Below, in pieces: positions 680 to 16,092 of a stretch of DNA of 64,000 nucleotides; position 1 is the stretch's first letter; every line of letters starts with the position of its first letter. Source of the stretch: a virus; the IMG/VR virus record IMGVR_UViG_3300023178_000043, positions 1 through 64,000 of that record. One strand, given 5' to 3'. The notes under the pieces are model-generated. The model saw only the letters and a list, made by a program, of their open reading frames with translations, did no database searches and had not been told where the DNA came from. The position numbers and the translations under genes were made by a program.

Positions 680-724
680 AATCTAACAGCGTGAAGGTCA
701 AAAGTCAAGAGGTCAATTGTAACA
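680..724 (-). promoter_or_regulatory. sigma70-type early promoter with one TGTTACA box
   Basis: The -10 is TAGATT (680-685), the spacer 17 bp and the -35 TTGACT (703-708). One TGTTACA box (718-724) stands 9 nt upstream of the -35, the same spacing as in the sister promoters. The second box is absent here. Confidence 0.75.
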
Positions 725-725
725 A

Positions 726-929
726 TCACGGAAGCACCTGCGTCATGGACTTGAAAGGAATGGCAGGGTAGAGGCCCGACCGATACCGTTCACGTTGGTT
801 CTCGACACGATTGGAGTCGGTGATTTCAACGAGACGGTAAATGTGTCCATACTTCAGACCATGACGGACATTGGTGTCCACGGTGTAGCCGTAGTCGTAT
901 GCTTTGGGAGCAGTGGTCCATACTTTCAT
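726..929 (-). CDS. small basic protein of unknown function (67 aa)
   Basis: The start is placed at the ATG at 927-929, preceded by GAAGGAAAG; upstream codons in the same frame have no ribosome site. Tyr-rich N-terminal half (KAYDYGY) and basic C-terminus. No family recognised. It follows the 35-aa membrane peptide by 1 nt and is probably in the same transcript from 1131-1159. Confidence 0.65.
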   Translation of the reverse strand: MKVWTTAPKAYDYGYTVDTNVRHGLKYGHIYRLVEITDSNRVENQRERYRSGLYPAIPFKSMTQVLP

Positions 930-930
930 T

Positions 931-1038
931 TTACTTTCCTTCGTAGATGTGTTCAAGGATGAGAAGAACAACAGAGAACGAGACGAGGAACGTGACACCC
1001 CAGATAGCGAAGTCCACGTTGAGGGCACCGCCGGTCAT
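931..1038 (-). CDS. 35-aa single-span membrane peptide
   Basis: Residues 8-29 are strongly hydrophobic (FAIWGVTFLVSFSVVLLIL), followed by a short charged tail. The ATG overlaps the TGA of the 19-aa frame upstream as ATGA, so translation is probably coupled and no separate ribosome site is needed. Function unknown; small phage membrane peptides often act on the host envelope, but nothing here says which way. Confidence 0.5.
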   Translation of the reverse strand: MTGGALNVDFAIWGVTFLVSFSVVLLILEHIYEGK

Positions 1039-1094
1039 CGTGAACCCCGGCACCGACGGCAGTGGCAGGTCTTGGTTTCGGTCTGGTCGGTCAT
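1035..1094 (-). CDS. 19-aa Cys-rich peptide (CHCRRC)
   Basis: First frame after the promoter at 1131-1159. AAGGAAACAAG stands just before its ATG, the same leader type as in the neighbouring transcripts. It contains CHCRRC, which could bind a metal or simply be a leader peptide. Its stop overlaps the start of the 35-aa membrane peptide, so its translation could control that gene. Confidence 0.4.
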   Translation of the reverse strand: MTDQTETKTCHCRRCRGSR

Positions 1095-1130
1095 CTTGTT
1101 TCCTTGGGTGGTCATTTCTGATTACCCTGT

Positions 1131-1159
1131 AAGATACATCCACAAGGGTGAAAAGTCAA
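1131..1159 (-). promoter_or_regulatory. sigma70-type early promoter
   Basis: TATCTT (1131-1136), 17 bp, TTGACT (1154-1159). It lacks a TGTTACA box at the usual 9-nt spacing; one TGTTACA lies further upstream near 1191-1197, next to the hairpin CAACG/CGTTG. It drives the peptides at 1094-931 and the gene at 929. Confidence 0.75.
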
Positions 1160-1276
1160 GGGGTCAGCACCCGAAAGCACCCGAAGAAAATGTAACAACG
1201 TGTAAGTCGTTGGGAGACAACAGCTTAGCGAGCAGCGTCCCGGTACCCACCTTGTAAGTGAGTGACCCCCATAGAT

Positions 1277-1468
1277 TTATGAAGATTCTTCGCGATACTC
1301 TAGACCACCCACCACCTTCAGACGTTCCAACCGTGCCCTGTTCCGCACGATGGTTCGCTCCTTGTCGTTGGTGGTCTTGTGTCTGGTGCTCTTCAGCTTC
1401 TCGTAGCGAGACAGGGGTTCATCCGACAGGTATCCGTCGAGGTATTGCTTGGTGTAGTTCATCCCCAT
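1277..1468 (-). CDS. small basic helical protein (63 aa)
   Basis: Not recognised. Lys/Arg-rich and predicted helical (residues 20-52), as in small nucleic-acid-binding or adaptor proteins. The start (ATG GGG ATG) overlaps the end of the zinc-ribbon gene upstream and uses its GAGGGGG as ribosome site. A stretch of about 120 nt (1160-1276) without a gene follows it. Confidence 0.6.
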   Translation of the reverse strand: MGMNYTKQYLDGYLSDEPLSRYEKLKSTRHKTTNDKERTIVRNRARLERLKVVGGLEYREESS

Positions 1469-1683
1469 ACCCCCTCGTAGGTTTCCATGATGTCGTGGTC
1501 ATCCGTATCATCGAATGCTGTGCTACCGATTGGGTAGGCGTTGTCGAAACAATACTCGCAGAGGATTTGACCCGTGGTAATGACCTCACCCTCTACGTAG
1601 AGGGAGCCCGTGGTATCCATCCAAACTTCATGTTGATTGAGGGGAAGACCACACCCTGAGCACTCTTTATGAGCAGCAGACAT
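1459..1683 (-). CDS. zinc-ribbon microprotein (74 aa)
   Basis: Two CxxC knuckles, CSGC (8-11) and CEYC (42-45), are spaced as in a zinc ribbon; the rest is acidic (FDDTDDHD). Likely a small metal-binding adaptor or inhibitor of host machinery; no family assigned. It overlaps both neighbours by 10-17 nt, a sign of a compact coupled operon. Confidence 0.65.
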   Translation of the reverse strand: MSAAHKECSGCGLPLNQHEVWMDTTGSLYVEGEVITTGQILCEYCFDNAYPIGSTAFDDTDDHDIMETYEGVWG

Positions 1684-1906
1684 AATCGGATTCCTTTACA
1701 GGTCGAGGGGTATACCGCGGTGAATGGTCAATGAGACTATCCAGCTGTTCCAAGACATCTCCCATTGTGACCTCTACATAGAGACGGTCGTCGGACAATG
1801 GGATGATGGGTTCACCCCACCCATCGCGGAGATTGAGGACGAAGTCATCCAGTTCTTCCAGCTGTTTACGGATGAGGTGAAGGGAGTGTCGTGTCACGTT
1901 GTCCAC
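1667..1906 (-). CDS. small helical protein of unknown function (79 aa)
   Basis: The GTG start at 1906 follows the GAGGAGGAG coding run of the gene upstream, which also serves as ribosome site. Helical and acidic with several aromatics; ends in DYVCCS. No domain recognised. Confidence 0.6.
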   Translation of the reverse strand: MDNVTRHSLHLIRKQLEELDDFVLNLRDGWGEPIIPLSDDRLYVEVTMGDVLEQLDSLIDHSPRYTPRPVKESDYVCCS

Positions 1907-2080
1907 TTACTCCTCCTCCTCGTTGTAGGAATCGTTCTCGACAAACTGCTGAGTCTCCTCGTCCCAGACCTTACCCTCAGTCCGAGCAAGAAACTCACGG
2001 CGACGGATTGCCTTGTCTTCCCTTTTCTGGGTCCAGACAGGGATGATGTCGGATACTGATGTCTTACGAATGGTGACCAT
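1907..2080 (-). CDS. small charged protein (57 aa)
   Basis: Starts at the ATG at 2078-2080 after CAAGGAAAGAAA, the first gene behind the promoter at 2118-2146. The N-terminal half is basic (RRREFLART) and the C-terminus is EEEE. The overlapping longer frame 1894-2133 has no ribosome site and is judged a shadow. Function unknown. Confidence 0.6.
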   Translation of the reverse strand: MVTIRKTSVSDIIPVWTQKREDKAIRRREFLARTEGKVWDEETQQFVENDSYNEEEE

Positions 2081-2117
2081 TTTCTTTCCTTGTGTTGGTC
2101 GTTTTTGAATGTCCTAT

Positions 2118-2173
2118 AAGATACAAAGGACAAGAGAGAAATTCAAGGGGTCAAGTGTAACTAAACTGTAACC
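2118..2173 (-). promoter_or_regulatory. sigma70-type early promoter with two upstream boxes
   Basis: TATCTT (2118-2123), 17 bp, TTGAAT (2141-2146), then 9 nt, AGTTACA (2156-2162) and, 11 bp further, GGTTACA (2167-2173). Both boxes fall within the 3' end of the next gene (2161-2322). Confidence 0.8.
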
Positions 2174-2322
2174 TTTCGGTCACATGAGGTGCACTTGAGA
2201 GTACGGTCAGGCCACCGATTCCAAACCTTCCAGTAGGTGAAGGTGTTACAGGACCGACAGTATGAGGATACATTCTCCGAAGGTGGTTGCTCGACCTCAA
2301 ACCTCCAAGACTCATGTCTCAT
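2161..2322 (-). CDS. zinc-ribbon microprotein (53 aa)
   Basis: Short frame with CRSC (22-25) and CTSC (44-47), a two-knuckle zinc ribbon rich in Trp. The ATG overlaps the TGA of the upstream gene as ATGA. Its last codons carry the upstream boxes of the next promoter. Probably an RNA- or protein-binding microprotein; no family recognised. Confidence 0.6.
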   Translation of the reverse strand: MRHESWRFEVEQPPSENVSSYCRSCNTFTYWKVWNRWPDRTLKCTSCDRKVTV

Positions 2323-2528
2323 CGGTTCACCCCCAGCTCGTCGTGGATGAGGTTGGTGATGTCGTCCGCGAGTTGTCTCATCGTGGAACGGTAGTCACGA
2401 CGGTCACACCAATCAATGAAGTTCAACGAGTGGTCGGAGTCCTCATCGGAAGCGGTGAGGAGATGAGTCCAAAGGTCGTTGGCCATGTTTCTCATCTCAT
2501 GGAGTGCGTTCAGTCTTTCCTTGGTCAT
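2319..2528 (-). CDS. small helical protein of unknown function (69 aa)
   Basis: A good GGAGG site lies upstream of the ATG. Helical, mixed charge, with one Trp-Cys (DWCDRR). No recognised domain. Follows the 55-aa gene closely and is coupled to the zinc-ribbon gene by ATGA. Confidence 0.65.
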   Translation of the reverse strand: MTKERLNALHEMRNMANDLWTHLLTASDEDSDHSLNFIDWCDRRDYRSTMRQLADDITNLIHDELGVNR

Positions 2529-2531
2529 GGT

Positions 2532-2699
2532 TCAACCTCCAAACTGGACTTCGGTGATTACGTACTCATCGTACCCGTCGGCGTCATCGAGCATTGCGAT
2601 GTAAGCCTCAGCCAGTTCACGGGTCGAGAAGACACGGGAATCTTCGTCGATGTGGAATCCAACGTAGGCTTCGTGGTACTGAACGACGAACATGGTCAT
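2532..2699 (-). CDS. small acidic protein of unknown function (55 aa)
   Basis: First gene after the promoter at 2738-2766. The start is put at ATG 2699 (or 2693) because AAGGAC lies 9 nt upstream; the in-frame ATG at 2732 falls at about +1 of the transcript within a leader conserved among these promoters. Reads like a small alpha/beta protein (MFVVQYHEAYVGF); no family. Confidence 0.6.
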   Translation of the reverse strand: MTMFVVQYHEAYVGFHIDEDSRVFSTRELAEAYIAMLDDADGYDEYVITEVQFGG

Positions 2700-2737
2700 G
2701 GTGTTGTCCTTGTTGGGTTGGTCATTTTTCATGATGG

Positions 2738-2793
2738 ATCATATAAAAATTCTACCCCATCCTCAAGGGGCTAAATGTAACAGGAATGTAACG
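2738..2793 (-). promoter_or_regulatory. sigma70-type early promoter with paired TGTTACA boxes
   Basis: TATGAT (2738-2743), 17 bp, TTGAGG (2761-2766), 9 nt, TGTTACA (2776-2782), 4 nt, CGTTACA (2787-2793). The 26 bases at 2767-2792 are identical to positions 1-26 of the window. Confidence 0.8.
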
Positions 2794-2872
2794 GAGTGTA
2801 AGTCGTTGAGTGGTAACCATTTACAAGGTCGGGACCGGGGGGTTCTGGTGTAACCCATTGAACCCGTTGAAG

Positions 2873-3376
2873 TTAGAGAAACACAGGATGGTGGTTTTTG
2901 ATTTTCTTCTCAACCATCCCCACATGAATCACATGGTCCTTGTTGAGTAGGGTGTCGAGGTCGATGTTCGTAGCGTAGTAGTTCCCCACGTTCCCAGCCT
3001 TCCAATCACTTTCAAGGAGGGGAACCTGAATCGCGAAGAATTCCAGCCGTTTCGTGACCACGTTCTCCGTCCATGTGACCATGAGGTAATCTCCATCACG
3101 TTTCGAGAACGCTCCACCCCTCCATGAACGAGAGTGGTAGCTGGTCTTGATTTCTACGGGGTTGTCGTCCACGTAGATGTCCGCTTCATGGTCACCGTTC
3201 CCACGACGACACCGAACACCCAGCTCCTCGCAGAAGGTCGTTTCTAGGATGTTGGAAATTAGCTCGGACTTCAGCTTGCGAGAGAGGTCAGTCTGGTCAC
3301 CCATGATTTCCGACATCCGCTCCCACTTGTCCGCGACTCGCGAGAGGGTCTGGTCCACATCACCAAGGTATTGCAT
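2873..3376 (-). CDS. PD-(D/E)XK-type endonuclease-like protein (167 aa)
   Basis: The start is the ATG at 3376 after GGAG, overlapping the upstream TAA as TAATG. Around residues 64-77 the sequence EADIYVDDNPVEIK gives D66, E75 and K77, the spacing of the PD-(D/E)XK fold found in restriction endonucleases and some phage nucleases. Size fits a small restriction-like enzyme. No methyltransferase lies next to it, so a role in host DNA breakdown or in attacking other phages is more likely than classical restriction. The motif is seen; fold and target are inferred. Confidence 0.5.
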   Translation of the reverse strand: MQYLGDVDQTLSRVADKWERMSEIMGDQTDLSRKLKSELISNILETTFCEELGVRCRRGNGDHEADIYVDDNPVEIKTSYHSRSWRGGAFSKRDGDYLMVTWTENVVTKRLEFFAIQVPLLESDWKAGNVGNYYATNIDLDTLLNKDHVIHVGMVEKKIKNHHPVFL

Positions 3377-3588
3377 TATGCGTACTCCAACGTGTAGGTT
3401 TTTGGATTGTAGACAGGAATGTCGAGGTCCTGACCCCACAGTCCAAGGTCGTTCTTGAGGTAGGTCAACTCACGATATGTCGAGAAGTAGCGAAGGTACT
3501 CACGGGAATCGTCGGACATCTTCCAGAAGGGGTCATACCTGCGGCGGAGTGTGTGGAACCGTTCGAGGTCGTGGTCAATCTCGTTCAT
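3376..3588 (-). CDS. small protein of unknown function (70 aa)
   Basis: Start chosen at ATG 3588, inside a longer frame that begins at 3621 near the transcription start. Rich in Tyr, Arg and Leu (REYLRYFSTYRELTYL), probably all-helical. It precedes and overlaps the nuclease-like gene by one base, so they form one unit from the promoter at 3628-3656. Confidence 0.6.
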   Translation of the reverse strand: MNEIDHDLERFHTLRRRYDPFWKMSDDSREYLRYFSTYRELTYLKNDLGLWGQDLDIPVYNPKTYTLEYA

Positions 3589-3627
3589 TTCTGTCTCGTT
3601 GGTGAGGAGGTCATTTTTCATACGAGT

Positions 3628-3683
3628 AATATACAGAGTTCGAGGTCAGAAATCAAGACCGTTTCTGTAACAGGATTGTAACA
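3628..3683 (-). promoter_or_regulatory. sigma70-type early promoter with paired TGTTACA boxes
   Basis: TATATT (3628-3633), 17 bp, TTGATT (3651-3656), 9 nt, TGTTACA (3666-3672), 4 nt, TGTTACA (3677-3683). Lies within the 3' end of the upstream gene (3653-3862). Confidence 0.85.
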
Positions 3684-3862
3684 TCCTCACAGATTTCTTG
3701 AGGGGTTCCCTCTGGTCGGTCGGTCAACGCCTGAAGGACCACGGGGTAGACGAGTCCAAAGGTGAACCCACGACCCAACCCGAAGCGGAGCATGGTCATC
3801 ACCTTTTCAAAGCGACGGTCAGACGAAGGTCGGTAGGAGATTCTGGGGAGAGAGTAGGTCAT
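3653..3862 (-). CDS. small protein of unknown function (69 aa)
   Basis: ATG at 3862 after GGAAGGGGAAG. The basic N-terminal half is followed by a moderately hydrophobic stretch (FGLGRGFTFGLVYPVVLQAL) that could be a membrane segment. The 3' end carries the boxes, -35 element and last codons of the next promoter region. Not recognised. Confidence 0.55.
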   Translation of the reverse strand: MTYSLPRISYRPSSDRRFEKVMTMLRFGLGRGFTFGLVYPVVLQALTDRPEGTPQEICEDVTILLQKRS

Positions 3863-3864
3863 GG

Positions 3865-3972
3865 TTACTTCCCCTTCCCGATGCCTAGGCTTCCGTTCGT
3901 TCCGTTCGCGAAGGCGATGATGAGTCCGTAGTTCAGGAGAATGAATCCGACGAGAATCAGAACCTTGGTCAT
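3865..3972 (-). CDS. 35-aa single-span membrane peptide
   Basis: ATG at 3970-3972 after GGAGG. Residues 4-22 are hydrophobic (VLILVGFILLNYGLIIAFA), then a Gly/Lys tail. Second membrane peptide of this type in the early region. Its coding tail (GGGAAGGGGAAG) forms the ribosome site of the next gene. Function unknown. Confidence 0.5.
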   Translation of the reverse strand: MTKVLILVGFILLNYGLIIAFANGTNGSLGIGKGK

Positions 3973-3975
3973 GGT

Positions 3976-4215
3976 TCAACCTCCACCGAACTGGTAAGCG
4001 ATGACCCGAGCATCTCCTGAAACCTGACCCTGTAGGGTCCACGTTCCGTCGATGTCGTCGTCCTCATCGAACACATGGTAGGTTCCACCCTGAGCGTTCT
4101 GCTTGGTGTGAGCGAGGATAACGTCACGGATGGAGTCAACGTCAGGAGCGACGACGACCATCATCCCGTAGGAGTAGTCTTGGAGCACATCGTTGGAGGT
4201 GTAGAGGTTCATCAT
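3976..4215 (-). CDS. small acidic protein of unknown function (79 aa)
   Basis: ATG ATG at 4215; the frame extends to 4251, but that upstream ATG lies at about +1 of the transcript. Acidic centre (DEDDDIDG) and aromatic-rich; ends in FGGG, like the 55-aa gene at 2532 (VQFGG), and both lie directly behind a TATGAT promoter with the same flanking bases. The two may be distant paralogues. Confidence 0.6.
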   Translation of the reverse strand: MMNLYTSNDVLQDYSYGMMVVVAPDVDSIRDVILAHTKQNAQGGTYHVFDEDDDIDGTWTLQGQVSGDARVIAYQFGGG

Positions 4216-4256
4216 CTCTGTTTCCGTGTTGAGGTGTGTTTCATTCTTCATGATGG

Positions 4257-4285
4257 ATCATACAATGGACCAACCCCAAGGTCAA
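4257..4285 (-). promoter_or_regulatory. sigma70-type early promoter
   Basis: TATGAT (4257-4262), 17 bp, TTGACC (4280-4285). No TGTTACA boxes at the usual spacing. The bases after the -10 (CCATCATGAA) match those behind the promoter at 2738. Confidence 0.7.
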
Positions 4286-4472
4286 GGGGCTGGGTGAAAT
4301 TTATCCCCTTGTCCCCCAACGACTTAGCAATTTGTTGGAACGAGAGGGTCGAAAATCGGTCAGTTCGGCAGACTTATTTGTAAATGGTCGAGGGGGTGGG
4401 TCCGTTTGGGTCGGGCCTCGTTGACGCACATTTCGGGGACGCAATTTTTACCTATAGAAAAGTTACTTTAGT
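4286..4472. other. intergenic stretch without a gene
   Basis: About 190 bp. It contains CAACGACTTA at 4318, which recurs in inverted orientation near 1200 and 2805, and otherwise only G-rich unassigned sequence. It marks the change from GC-rich small genes to AT-richer larger genes. Confidence 0.5.
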
Positions 4473-4490
4473 AAATTGCCCGGGCAATTT
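4473..4490 (-). terminator. perfect 18-bp palindrome at a gene end
   Basis: AAATTGCCCGGGCAATTT begins at the stop codon of the 186-aa gene. It can fold into an 8-bp stem and is flanked by A/T runs. Its place fits a terminator, possibly two-way, but the U-tract is weak and a protein binding site is possible. Confidence 0.5.
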
Positions 4491-5050
4491 TATTCCTCTA
4501 TAAGATGGTCCATTTCAAATTCTGTTAGTAGAGAAGGAATGGTATGTTTCAGAGGAAACTCATCTTTCCAAATAGGATCATATCTACCAGATCGGTGACT
4601 CCAACCAAATGAATCATAACGATTTAAAGTCAATTGAACAAATTTAGGTCGGCCATTTTTAGTTGTATACTTAATAGAATTGTTCTGTTCGCTTGTAATA
4701 TCCACGGTATTACAAACTTTACTAATAAACTCTTCAACAAAATTATCAAAACTCTTTAGAATTTCAGGTTGTAGTTCCACAATAGCGTGAGCCATGACAC
4801 GGGGATTGATATAATGGTCCGCTGTCGGCTTCTTACCAAATTCCACACGATTACGTTCAGCATCTACTGAAATAAAATGTGTTGATTGTTGTCTTGTTAT
4901 ACGACGAATTGCTTGATAAACGCTATTTAGAATAACAGATTTAGCCTGCGGACTCGCGTGTTTCCAGTTATTCTGTTCATTCTTGAGGAGATTAAACGCA
5001 ATTTCAGTCGCTTTATGATTCGTGTAATAGTTCCACATTGTATTAGACAT
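4490..5050 (-). CDS. protein of unknown function (186 aa)
   Basis: ATG at 5050 after GAAAGG. Mostly alpha-helical with a basic middle (AIRRITRQQS) and several Trp/Tyr; no family recognised. AT-rich codon use, unlike the genes to its left. Lies 40 nt behind the ParB-like gene and is probably transcribed with it. Confidence 0.6.
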   Translation of the reverse strand: MSNTMWNYYTNHKATEIAFNLLKNEQNNWKHASPQAKSVILNSVYQAIRRITRQQSTHFISVDAERNRVEFGKKPTADHYINPRVMAHAIVELQPEILKSFDNFVEEFISKVCNTVDITSEQNNSIKYTTKNGRPKFVQLTLNRYDSFGWSHRSGRYDPIWKDEFPLKHTIPSLLTEFEMDHLIEE

Positions 5051-5090
5051 TGGTACCTTTCTTTTTTCTAGACGCAGCCCTAACCGTTAG

Positions 5091-6449
5091 TCACCAGCTG
5101 AGGCCCCTAGTCGTTAGTTCTTTCTTTCCATTGATAAAAGACGCATTCAGAGCCTTTTTAGTTAGAAGTGCGACAGGGGTGCCGTTGACATCTACTTTAT
5201 CCATACATTCTTCGGGATTATTGACATCTTCACAGGAAATCTTTTGAGCAAGATAAAAAATGTTATTATCAATAAAATCGGTAATATTAGAATCGTTACG
5301 AGTTAGATTGTTATCATCAATGTTAACAAGTCCAATATCTACCAACCAATTGGCTTGTACAAGTATCCAATCAATCCACTTCCTGAACATTCTGGGAATC
5401 CTAATACGGTTCATGTCAAGATAATTTTCGGTCTTATAACCTGTACCACCATAAATCCCAACAACAAGGTTAACAAATGTTTTATTTGTCTCATAGTAGC
5501 GTTCTGCCGCGTCGCTCATGTCTCGACCAAAATTATCTGCGGAAGCATCAGCAAACGGTTGAATCCGAACTACATATTCTTCAAGTTCTTGTTCGGAACG
5601 TGTGGGTCCGTATTTTCTGTATACAGTTGAATCAATAGACTTAAGACCTGTTTTAACGATACGAATTCCCTTACGACTCTTAACATTGTTAGTAACTGTT
5701 TTCTTAATTTCTTCTGTTCTGTCATTATCGGTTAGTCCAAGATTATCAACTGTCTTTTCCGTGGCCTTTTCAATAATCTCTTCTACTGTACTGTCCACAT
5801 CAACAGTGTTTGTCTTAGTCATGTGTTCAACTTCACGTTGAACCTCGCGTTCCATGACAACTGTAAGACTTTCATCATCAATCATGGCACGCGGTTCGGG
5901 ACGAACACGATGATTTTCTTCTGTTTGAAGCTTTTCAATAATCGCTTCTCTATCCCAATAACGACCATCCGAATCCGTCATTTCATTAATTTCAATAACT
6001 TGAACAAGGATGGCCGGATAATTCGTAGCACGAGCGGCAAAGGAACGGTGGTGTCCATAGATCAACTTATATCTAGACTTTTCGGCTACCCACTCCACGC
6101 CAGGCATCCAATGACGACGGGGTTCGTAATCGCCGTTTTGGTACATAGCTTGAAACTCTTTCTTTACCTTATCTTTGATTCCACCTACACGGGTAGGGTT
6201 GTCGTCTGGATTCATTTCAATTTCGTCGGCAGGAGTCCATATAAACCCCTTAGTAACCACACACCCTTTGGGGATAATATTACGGCGTTCAAGCCATTGA
6301 ATCATGTTGTCGTAAGATCTCCAATATATTGGGTTAGAAAGTTCCTCCCAATCGTATGGCATAATACGCGCTTTTGGGTGATTCTTAATCACATCATGAT
6401 ATTGTTGATAGATCTCTGGACGATTGGACAGTTCAAATTGTGGTCCCAT
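5091..6449 (-). CDS. ParB-like domain protein (452 aa)
   Basis: Residues about 60-145 look like a ParB N-terminal/sulfiredoxin-type domain, with YGHHRSFAARA (131-141) matching the G-x-H-R-x-x-A nucleotide-binding motif. The rest is helical and charged, without the usual HTH that I can identify. In phages such proteins act in DNA binding, nicking or as NTP-dependent clamps. The promoter at 6494-6522 stands directly upstream. Domain call moderate, function unknown. Confidence 0.5.
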   Translation of the reverse strand: MGPQFELSNRPEIYQQYHDVIKNHPKARIMPYDWEELSNPIYWRSYDNMIQWLERRNIIPKGCVVTKGFIWTPADEIEMNPDDNPTRVGGIKDKVKKEFQAMYQNGDYEPRRHWMPGVEWVAEKSRYKLIYGHHRSFAARATNYPAILVQVIEINEMTDSDGRYWDREAIIEKLQTEENHRVRPEPRAMIDDESLTVVMEREVQREVEHMTKTNTVDVDSTVEEIIEKATEKTVDNLGLTDNDRTEEIKKTVTNNVKSRKGIRIVKTGLKSIDSTVYRKYGPTRSEQELEEYVVRIQPFADASADNFGRDMSDAAERYYETNKTFVNLVVGIYGGTGYKTENYLDMNRIRIPRMFRKWIDWILVQANWLVDIGLVNIDDNNLTRNDSNITDFIDNNIFYLAQKISCEDVNNPEECMDKVDVNGTPVALLTKKALNASFINGKKELTTRGLSW

Positions 6450-6493
6450 AGTTTTTTTCCTTACGGTTTATAGTTTAAATTTTATATATTAAT

Positions 6494-6550
6494 AATATAA
6501 TGTATTTTAGCCCAAAAATCAATACTTCAATTGTAACAACAATTGTAACA
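6494..6550 (-). promoter_or_regulatory. sigma70-type early promoter with paired TGTTACA boxes
   Basis: TATATT (6494-6499), 17 bp, TTGATT (6517-6522), 9 nt, TGTTACA (6532-6538) and a second TGTTACA (6544-6550), here 12 rather than 11 bp away. Confidence 0.85.
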
Positions 6551-6562
6551 CTTTAATGAATT

Positions 6563-9872: not shown

Positions 9873-9909
9873 ATGTAACTTATTAAGATAACATTATTCG
9901 TACAGTCTG

Positions 9910-10137: not shown

Positions 10138-10138
10138 T

Positions 10139-10519: not shown

Positions 10520-10531
10520 AACGTGCTCCAG

Positions 10532-11233
10532 TTAATGTGTTTTGTTATATAACTCCATGTATTCGTTTAACAATGCGTCAACCACTGAATTTCTATGATT
10601 TGTTTGCAAAGTATGTGAATCCATATCTTTGACCTTTTTAGAAACCGACAAGATAAATTTAAATCCAGAATCTTGTTTTTGTTTAAGGTCAACCTGCTGG
10701 TTGTCACCACATATAACCATTTTACTACGAATACCCAATCTGGACACAATCATTTCTGTTTGTTCGTGTGTGCAGTTTTGTGCTTCGTCAACAATTATAA
10801 AACTATCCAAGAAAGTACGACCACGCATAAATGCAACAGGAACGATTTCTACATACCCATTGGACAAAACATCGTCAATCTTATCTTTTTTATATAGTTG
10901 GTAAAAATTAGAATAGATGGGTTGCATCCAAGGTTCCATCTTTTCTCGTAAGTCGCCGGGGAGAAATCCTATTTCTTCTTTTGATACGGTTGGTCGTGTA
11001 ATAATAATTTGCTTGACTTCTTTTCTAAACAACATATCAAGAGCCACTTGACACGCTAACAAAGTCTTACCAGACCCGGCTTTTCCGTTAAGAACAGTGA
11101 TAGCATTATCAAGTATCTTTTGTTTTGCTACTTTCTGTTCGTCGTTTAATTGTATTTGAAACTTTATTGGTCCTTTCGGTTTTCTAGGTGTTTTTGTTTC
11201 ACCATTACCGTTACCATTCTTTTTTCTAGGCAT
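10532..11233 (-). CDS. phoH: PhoH-like ATPase (233 aa)
   Basis: Walker A GKAGSGKT (50-57), Walker B FIIVDEAQ (145-152) and the TRPTV and TNHR segments of the PhoH/RNA helicase-like family are all present. Length matches phage PhoH proteins. Basic, low-complexity N-terminus (residues 1-22). PhoH is frequent in marine phages; its role in infection is not settled. A TACTTATA motif precedes it, just downstream of tRNA-Val. Confidence 0.9.
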   Translation of the reverse strand: MPRKKNGNGNGETKTPRKPKGPIKFQIQLNDEQKVAKQKILDNAITVLNGKAGSGKTLLACQVALDMLFRKEVKQIIITRPTVSKEEIGFLPGDLREKMEPWMQPIYSNFYQLYKKDKIDDVLSNGYVEIVPVAFMRGRTFLDSFIIVDEAQNCTHEQTEMIVSRLGIRSKMVICGDNQQVDLKQKQDSGFKFILSVSKKVKDMDSHTLQTNHRNSVVDALLNEYMELYNKTH

Positions 11234-11260
11234 AACATATAATCTCTTAAATGTAACACC

Positions 11261-11268
11261 TATAAGTA
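11261..11268 (-). promoter_or_regulatory. late-promoter-like motif TACTTATA
   Basis: 27 nt before the phoH start, right after the 3' end of tRNA-Val; it would give phoH transcripts independent of the tRNA promoter. Confidence 0.5.
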
Positions 11269-11269
11269 G

Positions 11270-11343
11270 TGGGAAGTGAGGGATTCGAACCCCCGGCCCT
11301 CTGGATGTAAACCAGATGCTCTAACCAACTGAGCTAACTTCCC
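11270..11343 (-). tRNA. tRNA-Val (TAC)
   Basis: Acceptor GGGAAGT/ACTTCCC, loop TTTACAT, discriminator A; no CCA encoded. Confidence 0.95.
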
Positions 11344-11345
11344 AT

Positions 11346-11397
11346 GTAGGGAACAGGTATCTGCGTAAACCCGCAGTCCACTACTTTCCCCCACTAC
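11346..11397 (-). ncRNA. possible structured RNA between tRNA-Val and tRNA-Ile
   Basis: GTAG(TGG)GGGAA (11386-11397) pairs with TTCCCTAC (11346-11353), enclosing the hairpin CTGCG-GGTTTA-CGCAG (11361-11376). The whole 11344-11490 gap, about 145 bp, has no gene; it also holds the palindrome GAGTCATGACTC. Could be a small RNA or only a spacer with processing signals. Confidence 0.35.
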
Positions 11398-11490
11398 TTT
11401 GTTGTTCTGTTCTAGTCAGTTGCAGAATACGAGTCATGACTCCCGCGTCATTATCTGTTATCTGACATCAAATCAACGTTTCGTGTTTAA

Positions 11491-11564
11491 TCGTCCCTCA
11501 AGGATTTGAACCTTGGACCTCTCGCTTATCAGGCGAACGCTCTCACCATCTGAGCTAAGGGACG
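11491..11564 (-). tRNA. tRNA-Ile (GAT)
   Basis: Acceptor CGTCCCT/AGGGACG, loop CTGATAA, T-loop TTCAAAT, discriminator A. First base C is uncommon for tRNA-Ile. Confidence 0.9.
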
Positions 11565-11615
11565 GTATCAATACTTTGGAGGCATTCGTGCTACCATTAC
11601 ACAATGGACCCAAAG

Positions 11616-11689
11616 GGTGAACGACGGGGATCGAACCCGCGACAACCGGAACCACAATCCGGTGCTCTACCAACTGAGCTACGATCACC
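11616..11689 (-). tRNA. tRNA-His (GTG)
   Basis: Loop TTGTGGT. The extra G at -1 faces discriminator C, the tRNA-His identity element. One T-T mismatch in the acceptor stem (GTGATCG/CGTTCAC). Confidence 0.93.
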
Positions 11690-11692
11690 ATA

Positions 11693-11764
11693 CGGTCCCA
11701 CGGGGAATCGAACCCCGCCCTCGGCCGTGACAGGGCCGTGTTCTAGCCGATAAACTATGGGACC
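11693..11764 (-). tRNA. tRNA-Asp (GTC)
   Basis: Acceptor GGTCCCA/TGGGACC, loop CTGTCAC, discriminator G as expected for Asp. Confidence 0.94.
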
Positions 11765-11766
11765 AA

Positions 11767-11839
11767 CTCCGCCTGCAGGACTCGAACCTGCGACCCGCTG
11801 ATTAACAGTCAGCTGCTCTACCAACTGAGCTAAGGCGGA
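11767..11839 (-). tRNA. tRNA-Asn (GTT)
   Basis: Acceptor TCCGCCT/AGGCGGA, loop CTGTTAA, discriminator G. It directly abuts the stop codon of the thioesterase gene. Confidence 0.95.
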
Positions 11840-12199
11840 TTATTTTACCATACCATGTTTGGTTGGTTTTCCTTCTTCATCTAAACATACAAAAACAATC
11901 TCATCAATGTGTGCTATGATTTGTTTTGTTCTTTCGTTTCTGACCTCAACATCTACGGTCACTGATGTCTTTCCTAATTGTTTTAGTTGTACCCCAATCT
12001 CAACCATATCTCCTTGACGAGCCGGTGCAATAAAATCTACTTCTGACATTTTCTTGGTGACCAAACGATAATGTTTAATTTCAGACATTATATACATTGC
12101 TGCAGCTTCGTCAACCCAAGACAAAGCGGTGCCACCAAATAATGTGTTAGCGGCATTTAAGTCGCCAGGCATTACAATTTTTCTGGTTAAGAATCTCAT
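11840..12199 (-). CDS. acyl-CoA thioesterase, hotdog fold, YciA-like (119 aa)
   Basis: The segment GDLNAANTLFGG...WVDEAAAM (12-35) is the signature of the hotdog acyl-CoA thioesterases of the YciA/BFIT type, with Asp30 in the place of the catalytic acid. Length fits a single hotdog domain. Expected to hydrolyse acyl-CoAs in the cytoplasm. Rare in phages; sits in the tRNA array and overlaps the upstream membrane peptide by ATGA, so it is not a stray host fragment. Confidence 0.75.
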   Translation of the reverse strand: MRFLTRKIVMPGDLNAANTLFGGTALSWVDEAAAMYIMSEIKHYRLVTKKMSEVDFIAPARQGDMVEIGVQLKQLGKTSVTVDVEVRNERTKQIIAHIDEIVFVCLDEEGKPTKHGMVK

Positions 12200-12366
12200 A
12201 ACTCGTTTATTTCGCCGGGTTTTTTAAGTTTGTGTTTGTGGTGTAATCTTTTTAAGAATTGTTCTTCTAATCTTTGTATTCTTTCTTGTTCCTTTTTACG
12301 TTGTTTTCTGTCTATTACAATAATGACAAATAAACCAATAACCATTATAAAAAGAAATAAAGTCAT
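12196..12366 (-). CDS. 56-aa single-span membrane protein with basic coiled tail
   Basis: Residues 2-20 form a membrane span (LFLFIMVIGLFVIIVI), then a charged helix (QRKKEQERIQRLEEQFLKRL). The stop overlaps the thioesterase ATG (ATGA). It could tether the thioesterase near the membrane or act alone; not recognised. Confidence 0.6.
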   Translation of the reverse strand: MTLFLFIMVIGLFVIIVIDRKQRKKEQERIQRLEEQFLKRLHHKHKLKKPGEINEL

Positions 12367-12389
12367 CGTTATTCTCAGTTAATTGTTAG

Positions 12390-12461
12390 AGCACAGGGTC
12401 GGATTCGAACCGACGAATAAAGGATTTGCAGTCCTTTGCCTTACCACTTGGCTACCCGTGC
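12390..12461 (-). tRNA. tRNA-Cys (GCA)
   Basis: Acceptor GCACGGG/CCTGTGC, loop CTGCAAA, discriminator T, the Cys identity base. Confidence 0.95.
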
Positions 12462-12465
12462 GTTA

Positions 12466-12547
12466 CGGAGAGCCTGGGATTCGAACCCAGAAGTCCAATG
12501 GACGCTGGTTTTCAAGACCAGTGCAATAGCCGTTCTGCCAACTCTCC
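12466..12547 (-). tRNA. tRNA-Ser (TGA)
   Basis: Long variable arm, acceptor GGAGAGT/GCTCTCC, loop CTTGAAA, discriminator G. Confidence 0.95.
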
Positions 12548-12550
12548 ATA

Positions 12551-12632
12551 TGCCCATAGAGGGAGTCGAACCCCCACTTCCGAAGAAACCAGATCCTAAG
12601 TCTGACGCGTCTACCATTTCCGCCATATGGGC
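12551..12632 (-). tRNA. tRNA-Leu (TAG)
   Basis: Long variable arm, acceptor GCCCATA/TATGGGC, loop CTTAGGA, discriminator A. Its 5' base abuts the stop codon of the Mom-like gene. Confidence 0.95.
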
Positions 12633-13436
12633 CTAGTTGTAACTAAAAAACTTTTCCGCCAATTTGTTATTTCCGTGTTTTTGATAATTGTAATTAAACA
12701 CATCCATATTAAATTGTGGTTGTGTAATAAAATTGTATTTTCCTTTATCTACTCGTTCTTCAAATACTAAGTCTTTATCTTTTGGATATGGGTTAGACTT
12801 GTATTCATCATACTTAAATATGATTTTTCTTGACTTTTTGTCAAGTGGGTAAATATATCTAAACATCAACCCACGTATTCTACTGATACCTTTGTGTTCG
12901 CAGAAATCATGTTCTAACCAAAATATTTTTTCTTTATTAGAAAATATAGCGTTCTCCTTACACAATTGTTTTGAACTTCTAGGATGTATTTTCTCTCCAG
13001 TTTGTTTATCCATATAAACATTGGTCTTAAAATGACCAAGGTATATAAAGTTTGACGCTTGATAGACGTACCCACATTTACCCATAATTCCATCTGCCAT
13101 TGTATAAATAAATTTCACAGACGGAAGATTTTTCTTTGACCAAGAGATTAGTTCTTTCATGGCTAACGAACCAAAATTATCTCCATTTTTTTCAGGCAAA
13201 AAACACATTTTACCAATTTCAAAATAATCTTTTGTTGTAATTTCAGGATGTTTATAGAATATCTTTTTAATAGTAGCTTTTGGCTGCGTTCCCCATCCAA
13301 GAGTTACAACTCCAACTAATCTTTCTTCTTCAAAGAATCCCAAATAATATTTGGTCAATCTTGGTAAAATTTTACTATAATGATAACTGTGAATAAAATC
13401 CACCGCTGTAGTTTTTGAAATTTGTTTAATAAACAT
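12633..13436 (-). CDS. Mom-like / GNAT-fold protein (267 aa)
   Basis: N-terminal HSYHYSKILPRLTKYYLGFF, the strand GVVTLGWGTQP and the later EIGKMCFL and GSLAMKEL segments resemble Mu Mom-type proteins, which are GNAT-fold enzymes that modify adenines in phage DNA to resist restriction. Length is near the 240-aa Mom. The C-terminal third is Lys-rich and not recognised. If the call is right, this is an anti-restriction gene; no partner Com-like gene is visible. Alternative: another GNAT acetyltransferase. Confidence 0.5.
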   Translation of the reverse strand: MFIKQISKTTAVDFIHSYHYSKILPRLTKYYLGFFEEERLVGVVTLGWGTQPKATIKKIFYKHPEITTKDYFEIGKMCFLPEKNGDNFGSLAMKELISWSKKNLPSVKFIYTMADGIMGKCGYVYQASNFIYLGHFKTNVYMDKQTGEKIHPRSSKQLCKENAIFSNKEKIFWLEHDFCEHKGISRIRGLMFRYIYPLDKKSRKIIFKYDEYKSNPYPKDKDLVFEERVDKGKYNFITQPQFNMDVFNYNYQKHGNNKLAEKFFSYN

Positions 13437-13438
13437 GG

Positions 13439-13846
13439 TTAGAATATATTTTTTCTAATTTCTACACCTATAACTATTGAGGGTAAGAATTCTGTTTTGC
13501 TTTCATACAACAAGTCGGGTGTTATATAAAAATCTGTGGTCTTAGACACAACGGCAGGTGCAACAAAGAATACACGATTGACATATCTGACCCAAGGTAG
13601 AACAGGATTGCTTTCATAGTTACCAACCAATCCTGCTTCAAGTCTTTGGTTTTCTGTAATCTTGTATTGCACACCACCATACGGTGAAATTCTGTAATCG
13701 CTGTTGTAGTAAACACCAGCAATCCAATTTGTTGATTCATACATTTCACATTCGGCACTAACGTGTGGGTGATAATAATTTAACTTATCCACCTCACCAA
13801 ATGTAAGATGCATTGTAGCCGCAAATGCTAAAAATAAATTACACAT
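13439..13846 (-). CDS. small secreted barrel-like protein (135 aa)
   Basis: A short hydrophobic leader (CNLFLAFAATMHLTF) precedes alternating polar and aromatic strands (NWIAGVYYNSDYRISPYGGVQYKI) ending in VEIRKNIF, with a terminal Phe as in outer-membrane barrels. Likely a small envelope barrel. It ends 2 nt before the Mom-like gene begins. Confidence 0.5.
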   Translation of the reverse strand: MCNLFLAFAATMHLTFGEVDKLNYYHPHVSAECEMYESTNWIAGVYYNSDYRISPYGGVQYKITENQRLEAGLVGNYESNPVLPWVRYVNRVFFVAPAVVSKTTDFYITPDLLYESKTEFLPSIVIGVEIRKNIF

Positions 13847-13860
13847 AATTTCTCCTGTTA

Positions 13861-13944
13861 TGCTTCGAGCGAGACTCGAACTCGCAAGCCCTATCGGGCG
13901 TCAGATTTTAAGTCTGATGTGTATACCTATTCCACCACCGAAGC
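13861..13944 (-). tRNA. tRNA-Leu (TAA)
   Basis: Long variable arm, acceptor GCTTCGG/TCGAAGC, loop CTTAAAA, discriminator A. Confidence 0.95.
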
Positions 13945-13949
13945 CTAAG

Positions 13950-14024
13950 TCTGGGTGGTAGGATTTGAACCTACGACTTCTGCCTCCCAAAGGCAGCGCT
14001 CTGACCGTGCTGAGCTACACCCAG
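13950..14024 (-). tRNA. tRNA-Pro (TGG)
   Basis: Acceptor CTGGGTG/CACCCAG, loop TTTGGGA, discriminator A. Confidence 0.95.
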
Positions 14025-14030
14025 ATAAAA

Positions 14031-14150
14031 TGTGTCACCCCCATCAAAGGTGCTGGTCCTCCCCGTAGGTACTCCGCTCGAGCCGTTTCACTACGCTTCA
14101 CAGAACAGAGGTTTGTGTGAGCGTCCTCCCTCTCCTCCGGTGATGACACA
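14031..14150 (-). ncRNA. structured RNA A in the tRNA array
   Basis: About 120 nt closed by TGTGTCA/TGACACA and a few further pairs (14139-14150 with 14031-14042, one A-G mismatch). Inside are a 9-bp arm ACGCTCACA / TGTG(A)AGCGT, a CCT-ACGGGG-AGG hairpin and GCTCGAGC. GC-rich compared with its surroundings and without an open frame. U-G pairs favour the minus strand, as for the flanking tRNAs. It is not a tRNA and matches no RNA family I recognise. Confidence 0.6.
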
Positions 14151-14161
14151 TATTTTACTAA

Positions 14162-14258
14162 TGAGACATAACACCGAAACATATCTAAGAAATCACGACT
14201 AATCTAGATATGGACAAACCTGTCGTGTCAGGTAAGAACCGGAATTACATATGTCTCA
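14162..14258 (-). ncRNA. structured RNA B in the tRNA array
   Basis: 97 nt closed by TGAGACATA/TATGTCTCA (9 bp, exact). Inside: hairpin CCTG-ACACGA-CAGG, an 8-bp arm CATATCTA/TAGATATG, and CCG/CGG holding both together as a three-way junction. The 3' end of its closing stem is 11 nt from the start of RNA A; tRNA-Thr lies 1 base on the other side. No coding frame. Confidence 0.6.
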
Positions 14259-14259
14259 G

Positions 14260-14332
14260 AGCCCCCGGTCAGAGTCGAACTGACGACCGCTCGCTTACAA
14301 GGCGAGTGCTCTGGCCACTGAGCTACGGAGGC
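14260..14332 (-). tRNA. tRNA-Thr (TGT)
   Basis: Acceptor GCCTCCG/CGGGGGC, loop CTTGTAA, discriminator T. Confidence 0.95.
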
Positions 14333-14345
14333 AATAATATTTTTG

Positions 14346-14540
14346 TTAGTATGGGGTATGTGGTCCATTGTGAATTGGACTATAATAATCTTTTTTTGTT
14401 CGTGACTTTAAACCATCCTTGTTAAGTTCGTTAATTAACATATTAGCTAATTCAACTGATTGTTTTGCAGCACTTCTACCTTCCATATCATTCTTAACTA
14501 GTTCAATAAACAATCTTGTTGCTACTTCATCACGATTCAT
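14346..14540 (-). CDS. small helical protein (64 aa)
   Basis: ATG at 14540 after AAAGGAG. The same frame extends upstream into tRNA-Gln and is not used. Predicted two-helix protein with a basic C-terminus. Not recognised. Confidence 0.6.
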   Translation of the reverse strand: MNRDEVATRLFIELVKNDMEGRSAAKQSVELANMLINELNKDGLKSRTKKDYYSPIHNGPHTPY

Positions 14541-14557
14541 AACCACTCCTTTGTTAG

Positions 14558-14630
14558 TTGCCCCGCTAGGGCTCGAACCTAGACTCTCATGATCCAAAGT
14601 CACGCGTGTTGCCAGTTACACCACGGGGCA
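14558..14630 (-). tRNA. tRNA-Gln (TTG)
   Basis: Acceptor TGCCCCG/CGGGGCA, loop CTTTGGA, discriminator A. U1-A72 is typical of tRNA-Gln. Confidence 0.94.
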
Positions 14631-14656
14631 ATCGCTTTTTACTACGTTCACATCAG

Positions 14657-14730
14657 TACGCCCTCAGGGAATTGAACCCCGGACCTTTCGGATATAAGCC
14701 GAATGCTCTAACCGACTGAGCTAAGGGCGC
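14657..14730 (-). tRNA. tRNA-Ile (TAT)
   Basis: Acceptor GCGCCCT/AGGGCGT, anticodon stem TTCGG/CCGAA with loop CTTATAT, so the anticodon is TAT, reading AUA directly. Bacteria normally read AUA with a lysidine-modified CAT anticodon. Confidence 0.9.
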
Positions 14731-14737
14731 ATATAAG

Positions 14738-14884
14738 TTATTTGTCTTCCATAGATTTAAGTTTATCTTCTAATTCAACTAATCGTTTGAGTGCTCCAGC
14801 TTTTGTCCACCCATCGTTGTGGTTTGAATTAGCTTCAATTCTTAATCTTTTAATTTCTTCTTTAAGTTCATCAATATCTTTCAC
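14738..14884 (-). CDS. small coiled-coil protein, GTG start (48 aa)
   Basis: A strong AGGAGG precedes GTG. Heptad-like charged helix (ELKEEIKRLRIEA, LKRLVELEDKLKSM). Lies between tRNA-Ile and tRNA-Gly. Not recognised. Confidence 0.55.
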   Translation of the reverse strand: MKDIDELKEEIKRLRIEANSNHNDGWTKAGALKRLVELEDKLKSMEDK

Positions 14885-14902
14885 AATGACCTCCTATGTA
14901 AG

Positions 14903-14974
<72 letters not shown>

Positions 14975-14978
14975 AAAA

Positions 14979-15066
14979 TGGTTATGGATTTTCTTACTGA
15001 CATATTCAGCGAGCCGATCCTAAACACGCTGCCTTGGACGCGGGTAATTAATTCCTTCCATAACCA
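14979..15066 (-). ncRNA. structured RNA C in the tRNA array
   Basis: 88 nt closed by TGGTTATGGA/TCCATAACCA (10 bp, exact), with an inner stem CAGCG/CGCTG. It fills the space between tRNA-Gly and tRNA-Glu exactly and has no T-loop or anticodon arm, so it is not a degenerate tRNA by eye. No coding frame. Confidence 0.55.
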
Positions 15067-15070
15067 CAAG

Positions 15071-15143
15071 TACCCCCACGGAGAATCGAACTCCGGTCTT
15101 CAGGATGAAAGCCTGATATCCTCGGCCACTAGACGATGGGGGC
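15071..15143 (-). tRNA. tRNA-Glu (TTC)
   Basis: Acceptor GCCCCCA/TGGGGGT, loop CTTTCAT, discriminator A. Confidence 0.95.
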
Positions 15144-15152
15144 GTATAACCA

Positions 15153-15371
15153 TTATTGTAGAGAAATTTCTTCCATTGCGGGTGGAGCCATCAAACCAGC
15201 TTCACCCATCGCTCTGATAATCTGAACGATTCCATCAAACAAAGTCATATACGCTGATGGTCTTATCAAGAGAAGAAGCGTCAGAATGGAAAAAATAAAC
15301 ATTATTGTAGCCCAAACATTTAAGATAATAACCTTATTACCAACGGTAACGCTTGGACGTTCATCTGACAT
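15153..15371 (-). CDS. 72-aa single-span membrane protein
   Basis: GAGGAG before the ATG. Residues 18-38 form a membrane span (WATIMFIFSILTLLLLI). The C-terminal half is an amphipathic helix followed by Pro and Met. First protein gene in the tRNA transcript. Function unknown. Confidence 0.65.
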   Translation of the reverse strand: MSDERPSVTVGNKVIILNVWATIMFIFSILTLLLLIRPSAYMTLFDGIVQIIRAMGEAGLMAPPAMEEISLQ

Positions 15372-15417
15372 AGTGCTCCTCAGACAAAGGTTAACCTATG
15401 TAACTGTCAAATAACTA

Positions 15418-15490
15418 TGGGCCCTCTGGGACTCGAACCCAGAACCTATTGGTTAAAAGCCAAGTGCTCTACCAGTTGAGCTAAAGGCCC
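15418..15490 (-). tRNA. tRNA-Lys (TTT)
   Basis: Acceptor GGGCCTT/AGGGCCC, loop CTTTTAA, discriminator A. One mismatch in the anticodon stem (C27/T43). First tRNA after the promoter at 15513-15541. Confidence 0.94.
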
Positions 15491-15512
15491 GTCTTTTTCA
15501 ATTCATACCTAT

Positions 15513-15557
15513 AATCTAACAACAAACTCACTGAAAGTCAAGATGTGAATTGTAACA
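15513..15557 (-). promoter_or_regulatory. promoter of the tRNA array
   Basis: TAGATT (15513-15518), 17 bp, TTGACT (15536-15541), 9 nt, TGTTACA (15551-15557). The second box is degenerate (CGTCACA, 15563-15569). Transcripts would start about 15 nt before tRNA-Lys. Confidence 0.85.
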
Positions 15558-15561
15558 AATG

Positions 15562-15579
15562 TTGTGACGCCACTCACAA
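15562..15579 (-). terminator. possible terminator behind the tmRNA
   Basis: TTGTGA-loop-TCACAA hairpin followed by CATTTGTT on the minus strand. It lies between the tmRNA and the next promoter; the U-tract is weak. The stretch 15580-15685 holds other short stems (GCCC/GGGC, CCGGTC/GACCGG) and no gene. Confidence 0.35.
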
Positions 15580-15685
15580 TAAACCCTAAAGTATCTTACT
15601 ACTCCTGTTCCGGTCGCCCTGTATGGGCACATCCCATAACCGAAAGCGATATGGACTAATGAGGCGTTTTACTGGGCATTTGTTA

Positions 15686-16015
15686 TGGAGATGGCGGGAG
15701 TCGAACCCGCGTCCGAACTTAACTACCTAAATTACTATCAACGCTGTAGGACAGTTAGGGGTACCAAGGTGTCCAACCTCACGGCCTTGTCTCGTCTATG
15801 CCGGTCACGGAATACATTCTTTGGTGTATACATCCGCACTTAGCTCTATTCCTAAGAGTCACCCGATTACATTTACTTCCCGTGTTTATCTTATCGGTAT
15901 CAGATAGTGGGAAGGGCTTAAGCAGCCATTAGTAAAGGTTCGTCAGTTACTTTTAAAGTATCAAACTAGCGTGTCAATCCAGTATCATTAAACCCGTCGA
16001 AACCAGTGCATCCCC
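15686..16015 (-). ncRNA. ssrA: tmRNA, tag VTDEPLLMAA
   Basis: Both tRNA-like ends are clear: GGGGATG at the 5' end pairs with CATCTCC at the 3' end, GGTTTCGACGGG follows the 5' stem, and the T-arm GCGGGTTCGACTCCCGC precedes the 3' end. CCA is not encoded. The tag frame lies at 15918-15950 and reads VTDEPLLMAA then TAA, similar in plan to the E. coli tag ANDENYALAA, with an AA end for protease recognition. 330 nt is a normal one-piece tmRNA length. It has its own promoter at 16037-16065. Phage tmRNAs are known but uncommon. Confidence 0.93.
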
Positions 16016-16036
16016 GTATTTTCAATCAACTCTATA

Positions 16037-16092
16037 ATTATAACCACATTTATATAAATAATCAAGATGTCAAGTGTAACAGAACTGTAACA
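16037..16092 (-). promoter_or_regulatory. tmRNA promoter with paired TGTTACA boxes
   Basis: TATAAT (16037-16042), 17 bp, TTGATT (16060-16065), 9 nt, TGTTACA (16075-16081), 4 nt, TGTTACA (16086-16092). The best match to the shared promoter plan; the start point would be about 15 nt before the mature 5' end. Confidence 0.9.

What the first reader, a model, noticed from the sequence alone, without database searches (positions are those of the whole stretch)
680..16092. Shared early promoter plan with paired TGTTACA boxes one helical turn apart
Promoters at 2118, 2738, 3628, 6494 and 16037 all show TGTTACA-like box, 11-12 bp step, second box, exactly 9 nt, -35, exactly 17 bp, -10; those at 680 and 15513 keep one clear box at the same 9-nt place. 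Fixed phasing on one face of the DNA suggests a dedicated activator or repressor, or a particular way of contacting the polymerase alpha subunit. Promoters at 1131, 4257 and 17425 lack the boxes and could form a second timing class.
Basis: seen in the sequence. Interest (0 to 1): 0.75.

Follow-up and report, generated by a model that had tools for sequence, protein, structure and literature searches.

The report
Tandem regulator boxes at phage promoters
A group of uncultured contractile-tailed phages puts the same pair of GTTACA boxes, one DNA turn apart and a fixed 8-9 bases in front of ordinary bacterial promoters, upstream of its leftward (probably early) genes and its tmRNA/tRNA genes; this looks like a landing site for an OmpR/PhoB-type regulator, so phage gene expression may be coupled to such a sensor-controlled protein.

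Summary
Five leftward promoters carry GTTACA-n5/6-GTTACA-n9-TTGA-17-TAnnnT exactly; 0 expected. No other exact tandem pair lies in the 66.7 kb record except 10-26, whose -35/-10 lie on an overlapping contig (99.99% identical), which in all shows three further such promoters. Two of those use an 8-nt spacer, so "exactly 9" is 8 or 9.

Corrections: 1131 is not boxless; its TGTTACA sits 22 bp (two turns) further upstream. 15513 has a second, diverged box (GTCACA), conserved in a relative. 2118 has a third weak box.

Boxes are invariant at orthologous tmRNA promoters in three phages while the -35/-10 spacer keeps 9 of 17 bases. The architecture recurs in related phages (G004-G009, G012); reversed-sequence controls give 0.

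Sequence and geometry match head-to-tail sites of OmpR/PhoB-family regulators: TGTTACA-N4-TGTTACA fits the VicR consensus TGTWAHA-N4-TGTWAHA (PMC4168254), and position (about -61 to -45) matches the activating RpaB site (PMC9241938). Best reading: an OmpR/PhoB-type activator site, protein more likely host-made. Three related records encode a receiverless PhoB-like protein. The binding protein, direction of regulation, timing and host are unproven. New variant of a known kind.

The parts
2118..2183 (-). Boxed promoter: -10 2118-2123, -35 2141-2146, 9-nt spacer, proximal GTTACA 2156-2161, distal GTTACA 2167-2172, weak third box GTGACC 2178-2183
2738..2792 (-). Boxed promoter: -10 2738-2743, -35 2761-2766, boxes 2776-2781 and 2787-2792
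3628..3682 (-). Boxed promoter: -10 3628-3633, -35 3651-3656, boxes 3666-3671 and 3677-3682
6494..6549 (-). Boxed promoter (12-bp step) before the 452-aa ORF 5091-6449: -10 6494-6499, -35 6517-6522, boxes 6532-6537 and 6544-6549
16037..16091 (-). Boxed promoter of the tmRNA gene: -10 16037-16042, -35 16060-16065, boxes 16075-16080 and 16086-16091; both boxes invariant in G002 and G003
15513..15568 (-). Promoter before tRNA-Lys and the leftward tRNA array: -10 15513-15518, -35 15536-15541, proximal GTTACA 15551-15556, diverged distal GTCACA 15563-15568 (12-bp step) conserved in G003
680..723 (-). Promoter with a single proximal box: -10 680-685, -35 703-708, GTTACA 718-723; a G003 promoter with the same single box (L162 20180) aligns to it
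1131..1197 (-). Promoter with displaced box: -10 1131-1136, -35 1154-1159, TGTTACA 1191-1197 (31 nt = 9+22 before -35)
10..26 (-). Tandem boxes of a further promoter whose -35 and -10 lie left of the window (seen on G001, L010 16424-16478)
4257..4285 (-). Promoter core without a good box (-10 4257-4262, -35 4280-4285)
17425..17453 (-). Boxless promoter core upstream of the small ORF 17173-17397 and purA

Best explanation
The paired boxes are a tandem, head-to-tail operator (unit about GTTACA-wTYcY, 11-bp period) for a winged-helix protein of the OmpR/PhoB family. Two monomers would sit side by side on one face of the DNA from about -61 to -45, directly upstream of a standard sigma-70-type promoter, and recruit RNA polymerase to the phage's leftward (probably early) operons and its tmRNA/tRNA operon. 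Because genes read right after entry need factors already in the cell, the protein is more likely the host's own response regulator (WalR/RpaB/PhoB-like) than a phage product. Shown: the architecture, its non-random geometry, its conservation. Inferred: protein family (from motif and spacing), activation (from position), host origin and early timing (from gene layout).
For: Five exact composite sites in the window, 0 expected; three more on the overlapping contig. At the tmRNA promoter all 12 box bases are identical in three phages while 9 of 17 bases between -35 and -10 are; at the tRNA-Lys promoter even the diverged GTCACA is kept between G000 and G003. Same plan, with 17-bp core spacing and an 11-bp step, in related phages G004-G009 and G012, with reversed-sequence controls at 0; one G007 promoter has three perfect 11-bp-spaced boxes. 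The base before GTTACA is C in 16 of 44 boxes, so the site behaves as a direct repeat rather than the palindrome TGTnACA. TGTTACA-N4-TGTTACA satisfies the VicR consensus TGTWAHA-N4-TGTWAHA (PMC4168254); M. tuberculosis PhoP uses 7-bp repeats with a 4-bp spacer (PMC4832192, abstract); RpaB activates from GTTACA-type repeats at -45 to -60 (PMC9241938); CenR sites of activated operons lie upstream of -35 (PMC9275681). Host PhoB binding to phage promoters has precedent in cyanophage S-PM2d (PMC10976474).
Against: No binding or expression data. The host is unidentified, so no candidate regulator could be tested. The full pattern is rare in bacterial genomes: 32 stretches among 84,980 species genomes, no group standing out, and at most one shorter match per genome in the 16 of those genomes searched whole; Alphaproteobacteria 1 of 190, Neomarinimicrobiota 1 of 149, Cyanobacteriota 7 of 146. 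So no known host regulon with this exact geometry was found, although real host sites are usually degenerate. RpaB's HLR1 has a 10-bp, not 11-bp, period. Single-box promoters (680; two in G003; one in G002) show that a pair is not obligatory.
Confidence: 0.48

Rival explanations
1. The boxes are read by a phage-encoded protein: a receiverless PhoB-like winged-helix protein (or another phage regulator), possibly carried in the virion, that activates or times phage transcription.
For: Three closely related records with the architecture (G008, G009, G012) encode a 253-aa protein with a C-terminal Trans_reg_C domain (E 1.1e-22) and no receiver domain found; its closest solved structure by sequence is the PhoB DNA-binding domain (E 4e-17) and it matches phrog_731. 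Its N-terminal module recurs in an otherwise unrelated 189-aa protein of G005. Repeated copies of the pattern are concentrated in one phage group and the pattern is rare in bacteria.
Against: No such domain in G000-G007 (E up to 10; phrog_731), including the 178-kb G006, although records are fragments. Virion location of the protein is a guess. Immediate-early genes normally need a factor already present.
Confidence: 0.22
2. The boxes are operators of a repressor that shuts these promoters off later in infection, or holds them off under some host state.
For: Motif and conservation alone do not tell the sign; CenR, an OmpR-family regulator, both activates and represses (PMC9275681).
Against: The boxes lie wholly upstream of -35 (about -61 to -45) and never overlap -35, -10 or the start in 22 aligned promoters; in the CenR regulon sites upstream of -35 go with activation.
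Confidence: 0.12
3. The boxes are a special UP element contacted directly by the RNA polymerase alpha subunit; no further protein is needed.
For: Position -61 to -45 overlaps the UP-element region and phasing is helical; bases two and three after each proximal box are only A or T.
Against: G and C in GTTACA are invariant in all 44 boxes, unlike A/T-tract UP elements (own knowledge); spacer and flanks are often GC-rich.
Confidence: 0.08
4. The promoters are duplicated cassettes that share the boxes by descent, without function for the boxes.
For: Some promoters share longer sequence (1-26 and 2767-2792 are identical).
Against: Boxes stay invariant at orthologous promoters whose core spacer changed and in relatives whose baseplate wedge proteins are about 45% identical.
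Confidence: 0.04

Closest known systems
WalR/VicR (YycF) box of Bacillota, TGTWAHA-N4-TGTWAHA
   Same: Both boxes and the 11-bp period satisfy the consensus; direct repeat; phased on one face; VicR also partly tolerates an extra helical turn between repeats (PMC4168254).
   Different: Known in Gram-positive hosts; no evidence that the phage host is one, and the phage's lipoprotein-like and outer-membrane-like leftward products suggest a Gram-negative host (inference from ORF sequences).
RpaB HLR1 element of cyanobacteria, (G/T)TTACA(T/A)(T/A)-N2-repeat
   Same: GTTACA core, direct repeat, activating position around -45 to -60 (PMC9241938).
   Different: HLR1 period is 10 bp; here 11, sometimes 12. 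No psbA in any of 14 boxed records.
PhoB/PhoP Pho boxes, including those in cyanophage promoters
   Same: Tandem repeats with OmpR-family spacing; precedent for a phage using host PhoB (PMC10976474).
   Different: Half-site differs from the PhoB TGTCA core, and E. coli Pho boxes replace the -35 (own knowledge), whereas these phage promoters keep a good -35.
T4 early promoters
   Same: Many sigma-70-type early promoters using host polymerase.
   Different: T4 early promoters have no paired GTTACA operator at fixed distance (own knowledge).

Membership tests
sigma-70-type promoter | -35 TTGACN and -10 TANNNT, 16-18 bp apart | tested here: met
   TTG invariant, 17-bp spacing in all 22 aligned boxed promoters
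OmpR/PhoB-family operator | tandem direct repeats with 10-11 bp period | tested here: met
   11 bp in 19 of 22, 12 bp in 3 of 22; three perfect boxes in one G007 promoter
OmpR/PhoB-family operator | bound by an OmpR/PhoB-family protein | not testable with these tools
   needs EMSA or pull-down
WalR/VicR box | match to TGTWAHA-N4-TGTWAHA | tested here: met
   exact TGTTACA-N4-TGTTACA at 3666-3683 and 16075-16092 (consensus); several other boxes have C or G in the first position, e.g. 2738, 2118 and G006
WalR/VicR box | host encodes a WalR orthologue | not testable with these tools
   host not identified
RpaB HLR1 | repeats separated by 2 nt (10-bp period) | tested here: not met
   period 11 or 12
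PhoB Pho box (E. coli type) | TGTCA half-sites replacing the -35 | tested here: not met
   GTTACA half-sites upstream of an intact -35
UP element | A/T-tract subsites without required G or C | tested here: not met
   G and C invariant in 44 of 44 boxes
Phage-encoded OmpR-type regulator | Trans_reg_C protein in the same phage | tested here: inconclusive
   not found in G000-G007, which are fragments; present in G008, G009, G012

The most novel reading that the evidence does not exclude
A whole lineage of T4-like phages gates its early and tmRNA/tRNA transcription through an OmpR/PhoB-type regulator, with some members carrying their own receiverless PhoB-like protein (perhaps packaged and injected) to replace the host factor and escape that dependence.
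Probability: 0.14. Interest if true: 0.82.

Novelty: new variant of a known kind. Interest (0 to 1): 0.55.

Why it matters
Phage use of a host two-component regulator is known for some genes of cyanophages (PMC10976474). Here a fixed operator-promoter plan stands before many leftward, probably early operons and the tmRNA/tRNA genes of a phage group, so infection itself may depend on such a signalling protein. The predicted protein class, site and geometry make this directly testable, and the motif can be used to find early genes and relatives in metagenomes.

Tried and rejected
Host identification: megablast of the left 25 kb against phages gave only short matches of 60-80 bases, those listed lying on tRNA genes; a virion protein is distantly like cyanophage (Kyanoviridae) proteins, but there is no psbA; the purA matches listed are about 37-39% identical and uninformative. 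Similarities of G006/G007 to rhizobial phages trace to one phage gene. Cultured phages with the same promoter: only short matches at E about 1 or more, judged chance; in Ruegeria phage RpAliso the boxes point against the neighbouring genes. Bacterial genes downstream of genome-scan hits form no common regulon. Published ChvI and CenR motifs do not match GTTACA; the BvrR motif was not printed in the passages read. More distant baseplate relatives: 0 of 50 contigs carry the pattern, but most are short. Collection-wide controls gave 7, 9 and 2 stretches against 18 real ones, so isolated single hits (G010, G011, G013, L155-L159) are not trusted; the argument rests on the related group with repeated sites.

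Full report
CHECK. Reverse-complement alignment of the ten promoters puts every element in register. The composite pattern occurs five times exactly in the window and never in 100 shuffles. Tandem GTTACA pairs with the 11-bp step occur nowhere else in the 66.7-kb record without mismatches, apart from positions 10-26. A second IMG/VR contig (G001) is 99.99% identical over window 1-16449 and runs about 690 bp further left; it supplies the missing core of that promoter and two more boxed promoters. The latter two have 8 nt between box and -35, so the distance is 8 or 9. The promoter at 1131 has an exact box 22 bp further upstream than usual; 15513 has a GTCACA second box; 2118 has a weak third box.

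CONSERVATION. Two relatives (G002, purA 82% identical; G003, 79%) keep the tmRNA promoter boxes without a single change while 9 of 17 bases between -35 and -10 are invariant (counted by eye from the alignment). At the tRNA-Lys promoter G003 keeps both the proximal GTTACA and the diverged distal GTCACA; in G002 the tmRNA 3' end lies directly before the proximal box, which survives, while the distal box is absent. G003 also has two promoters with an 8-nt spacer and two single-box promoters, one of which aligns to window 680.

DISTRIBUTION. A scan of 2.9 million viral contigs finds 18 stretches. Several belong to phages related to the window phage: G002, G003, G004, G005, G006, G007 and G008/G009/G012 share ORFs among themselves, with the baseplate wedge protein at 44-46% identity between G000 and G005 or G008. 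G006 has three and G007 two such promoters; reversed-sequence controls give none. Most of the downstream ORFs are small (about 50-140 aa); in G012 it is a 692-aa ORF with a weak match to a cobalamin-biosynthesis family, next to a CobS-like ORF. Scrambled and re-spaced control scans give 7, 9 and 2 stretches, so isolated single hits elsewhere are not trusted. Fifty contigs of more distant baseplate relatives have none, with the caveat that most are short.

WHAT BINDS. Over 22 boxed promoters GTTACA is invariant except for a T-to-C change in two distal boxes; the step is 11 bp in 19 and 12 bp in 3; C is common before the box, so this is a direct repeat. These 22 were chosen for having boxes, so the tally describes the motif and is not itself a test. 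The pattern is the signature of OmpR/PhoB-family proteins: VicR prefers TGTWAHA-N4-TGTWAHA and is sensitive to helical phasing (PMC4168254); PhoP of M. tuberculosis binds 7-bp repeats with a 4-bp spacer (PMC4832192, abstract); RpaB recognises (G/T)TTACA repeats and activates from about -45 to -60 (PMC9241938). Taking -10 as -12 to -7, the phage boxes lie at about -61 to -45 (-60 to -44 with the 8-nt spacer). The matching position argues for activation, but nothing here measures it.

WHOSE PROTEIN. Bacterial genomes show the full pattern rarely and a shorter one at most once in each of 16 hit genomes, with a weak excess in Cyanobacteriota (7 of 146 genomes; Alphaproteobacteria 1 of 190; Neomarinimicrobiota 1 of 149). 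Three of the Cyanobacteriota-phylum hits lie before similar TPR-like protein genes with the 8-nt spacer, a sign that a bacterial regulator can use this geometry. Among boxed phages, G008, G009 and G012 encode a 253-aa protein ending in a PhoB-like winged helix, without a recognisable receiver domain; no such domain is found in the other related records. A host regulator is therefore preferred, with a phage-encoded one as main rival.

NOVELTY AND LIMITS. Promoter type and operator type are known; their fixed combination before the leftward and stable-RNA operons of a phage group was not found in the literature searched here, which is an open-access subset. The host, the regulator, the sign of regulation and the timing remain unproven.

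Noticed in passing
L196:11216-11974 (-); also G008 and G009: 253-aa phage protein with a C-terminal PhoB-like winged helix and no receiver; its N-terminal module (..GLxYMxFGRWGK..) recurs in an otherwise unrelated 189-aa protein of G005 (L180 7600-8166).
   Followed up: partly
window 2738, 3628, 4257; L162 19583: In several promoters an in-frame ATG (MKND/MKNE...) starts 5-6 bases after the -10, suggesting leaderless starts, whereas sister promoters have a leader with AAGGA-like sites instead.
   Followed up: no
window 15686-16015 (-): Phage tmRNA with a short tag DEPLLMAA (DEPYLMAA in G002 and G003).
   Followed up: no
window 12633-13436 (-): Mom-family protein (PF25680, E 2e-55), a DNA-modification family, in the leftward region.
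   Followed up: no
window 1-4300: The leftmost 4 kb is about 51% GC against about 37% in most of the rest, with many small ORFs.
   Followed up: no
window 1165-1187: A 10-bp tandem repeat (TTCGGGTGCT twice on the minus strand) separates the 1131 promoter from its box, as if a short insertion had moved the box by two turns.
   Followed up: partly
L323, L324, L325: Three genomes of the Cyanobacteriota phylum carry GTTACA-n5-GTTACA-n8-TTG before a similar TPR-like protein gene.
   Followed up: partly
window 61156-61265 and 62752-62861: 110-bp direct repeat at 87% identity within the long open frame from 56893, a probable structural gene.
   Followed up: no
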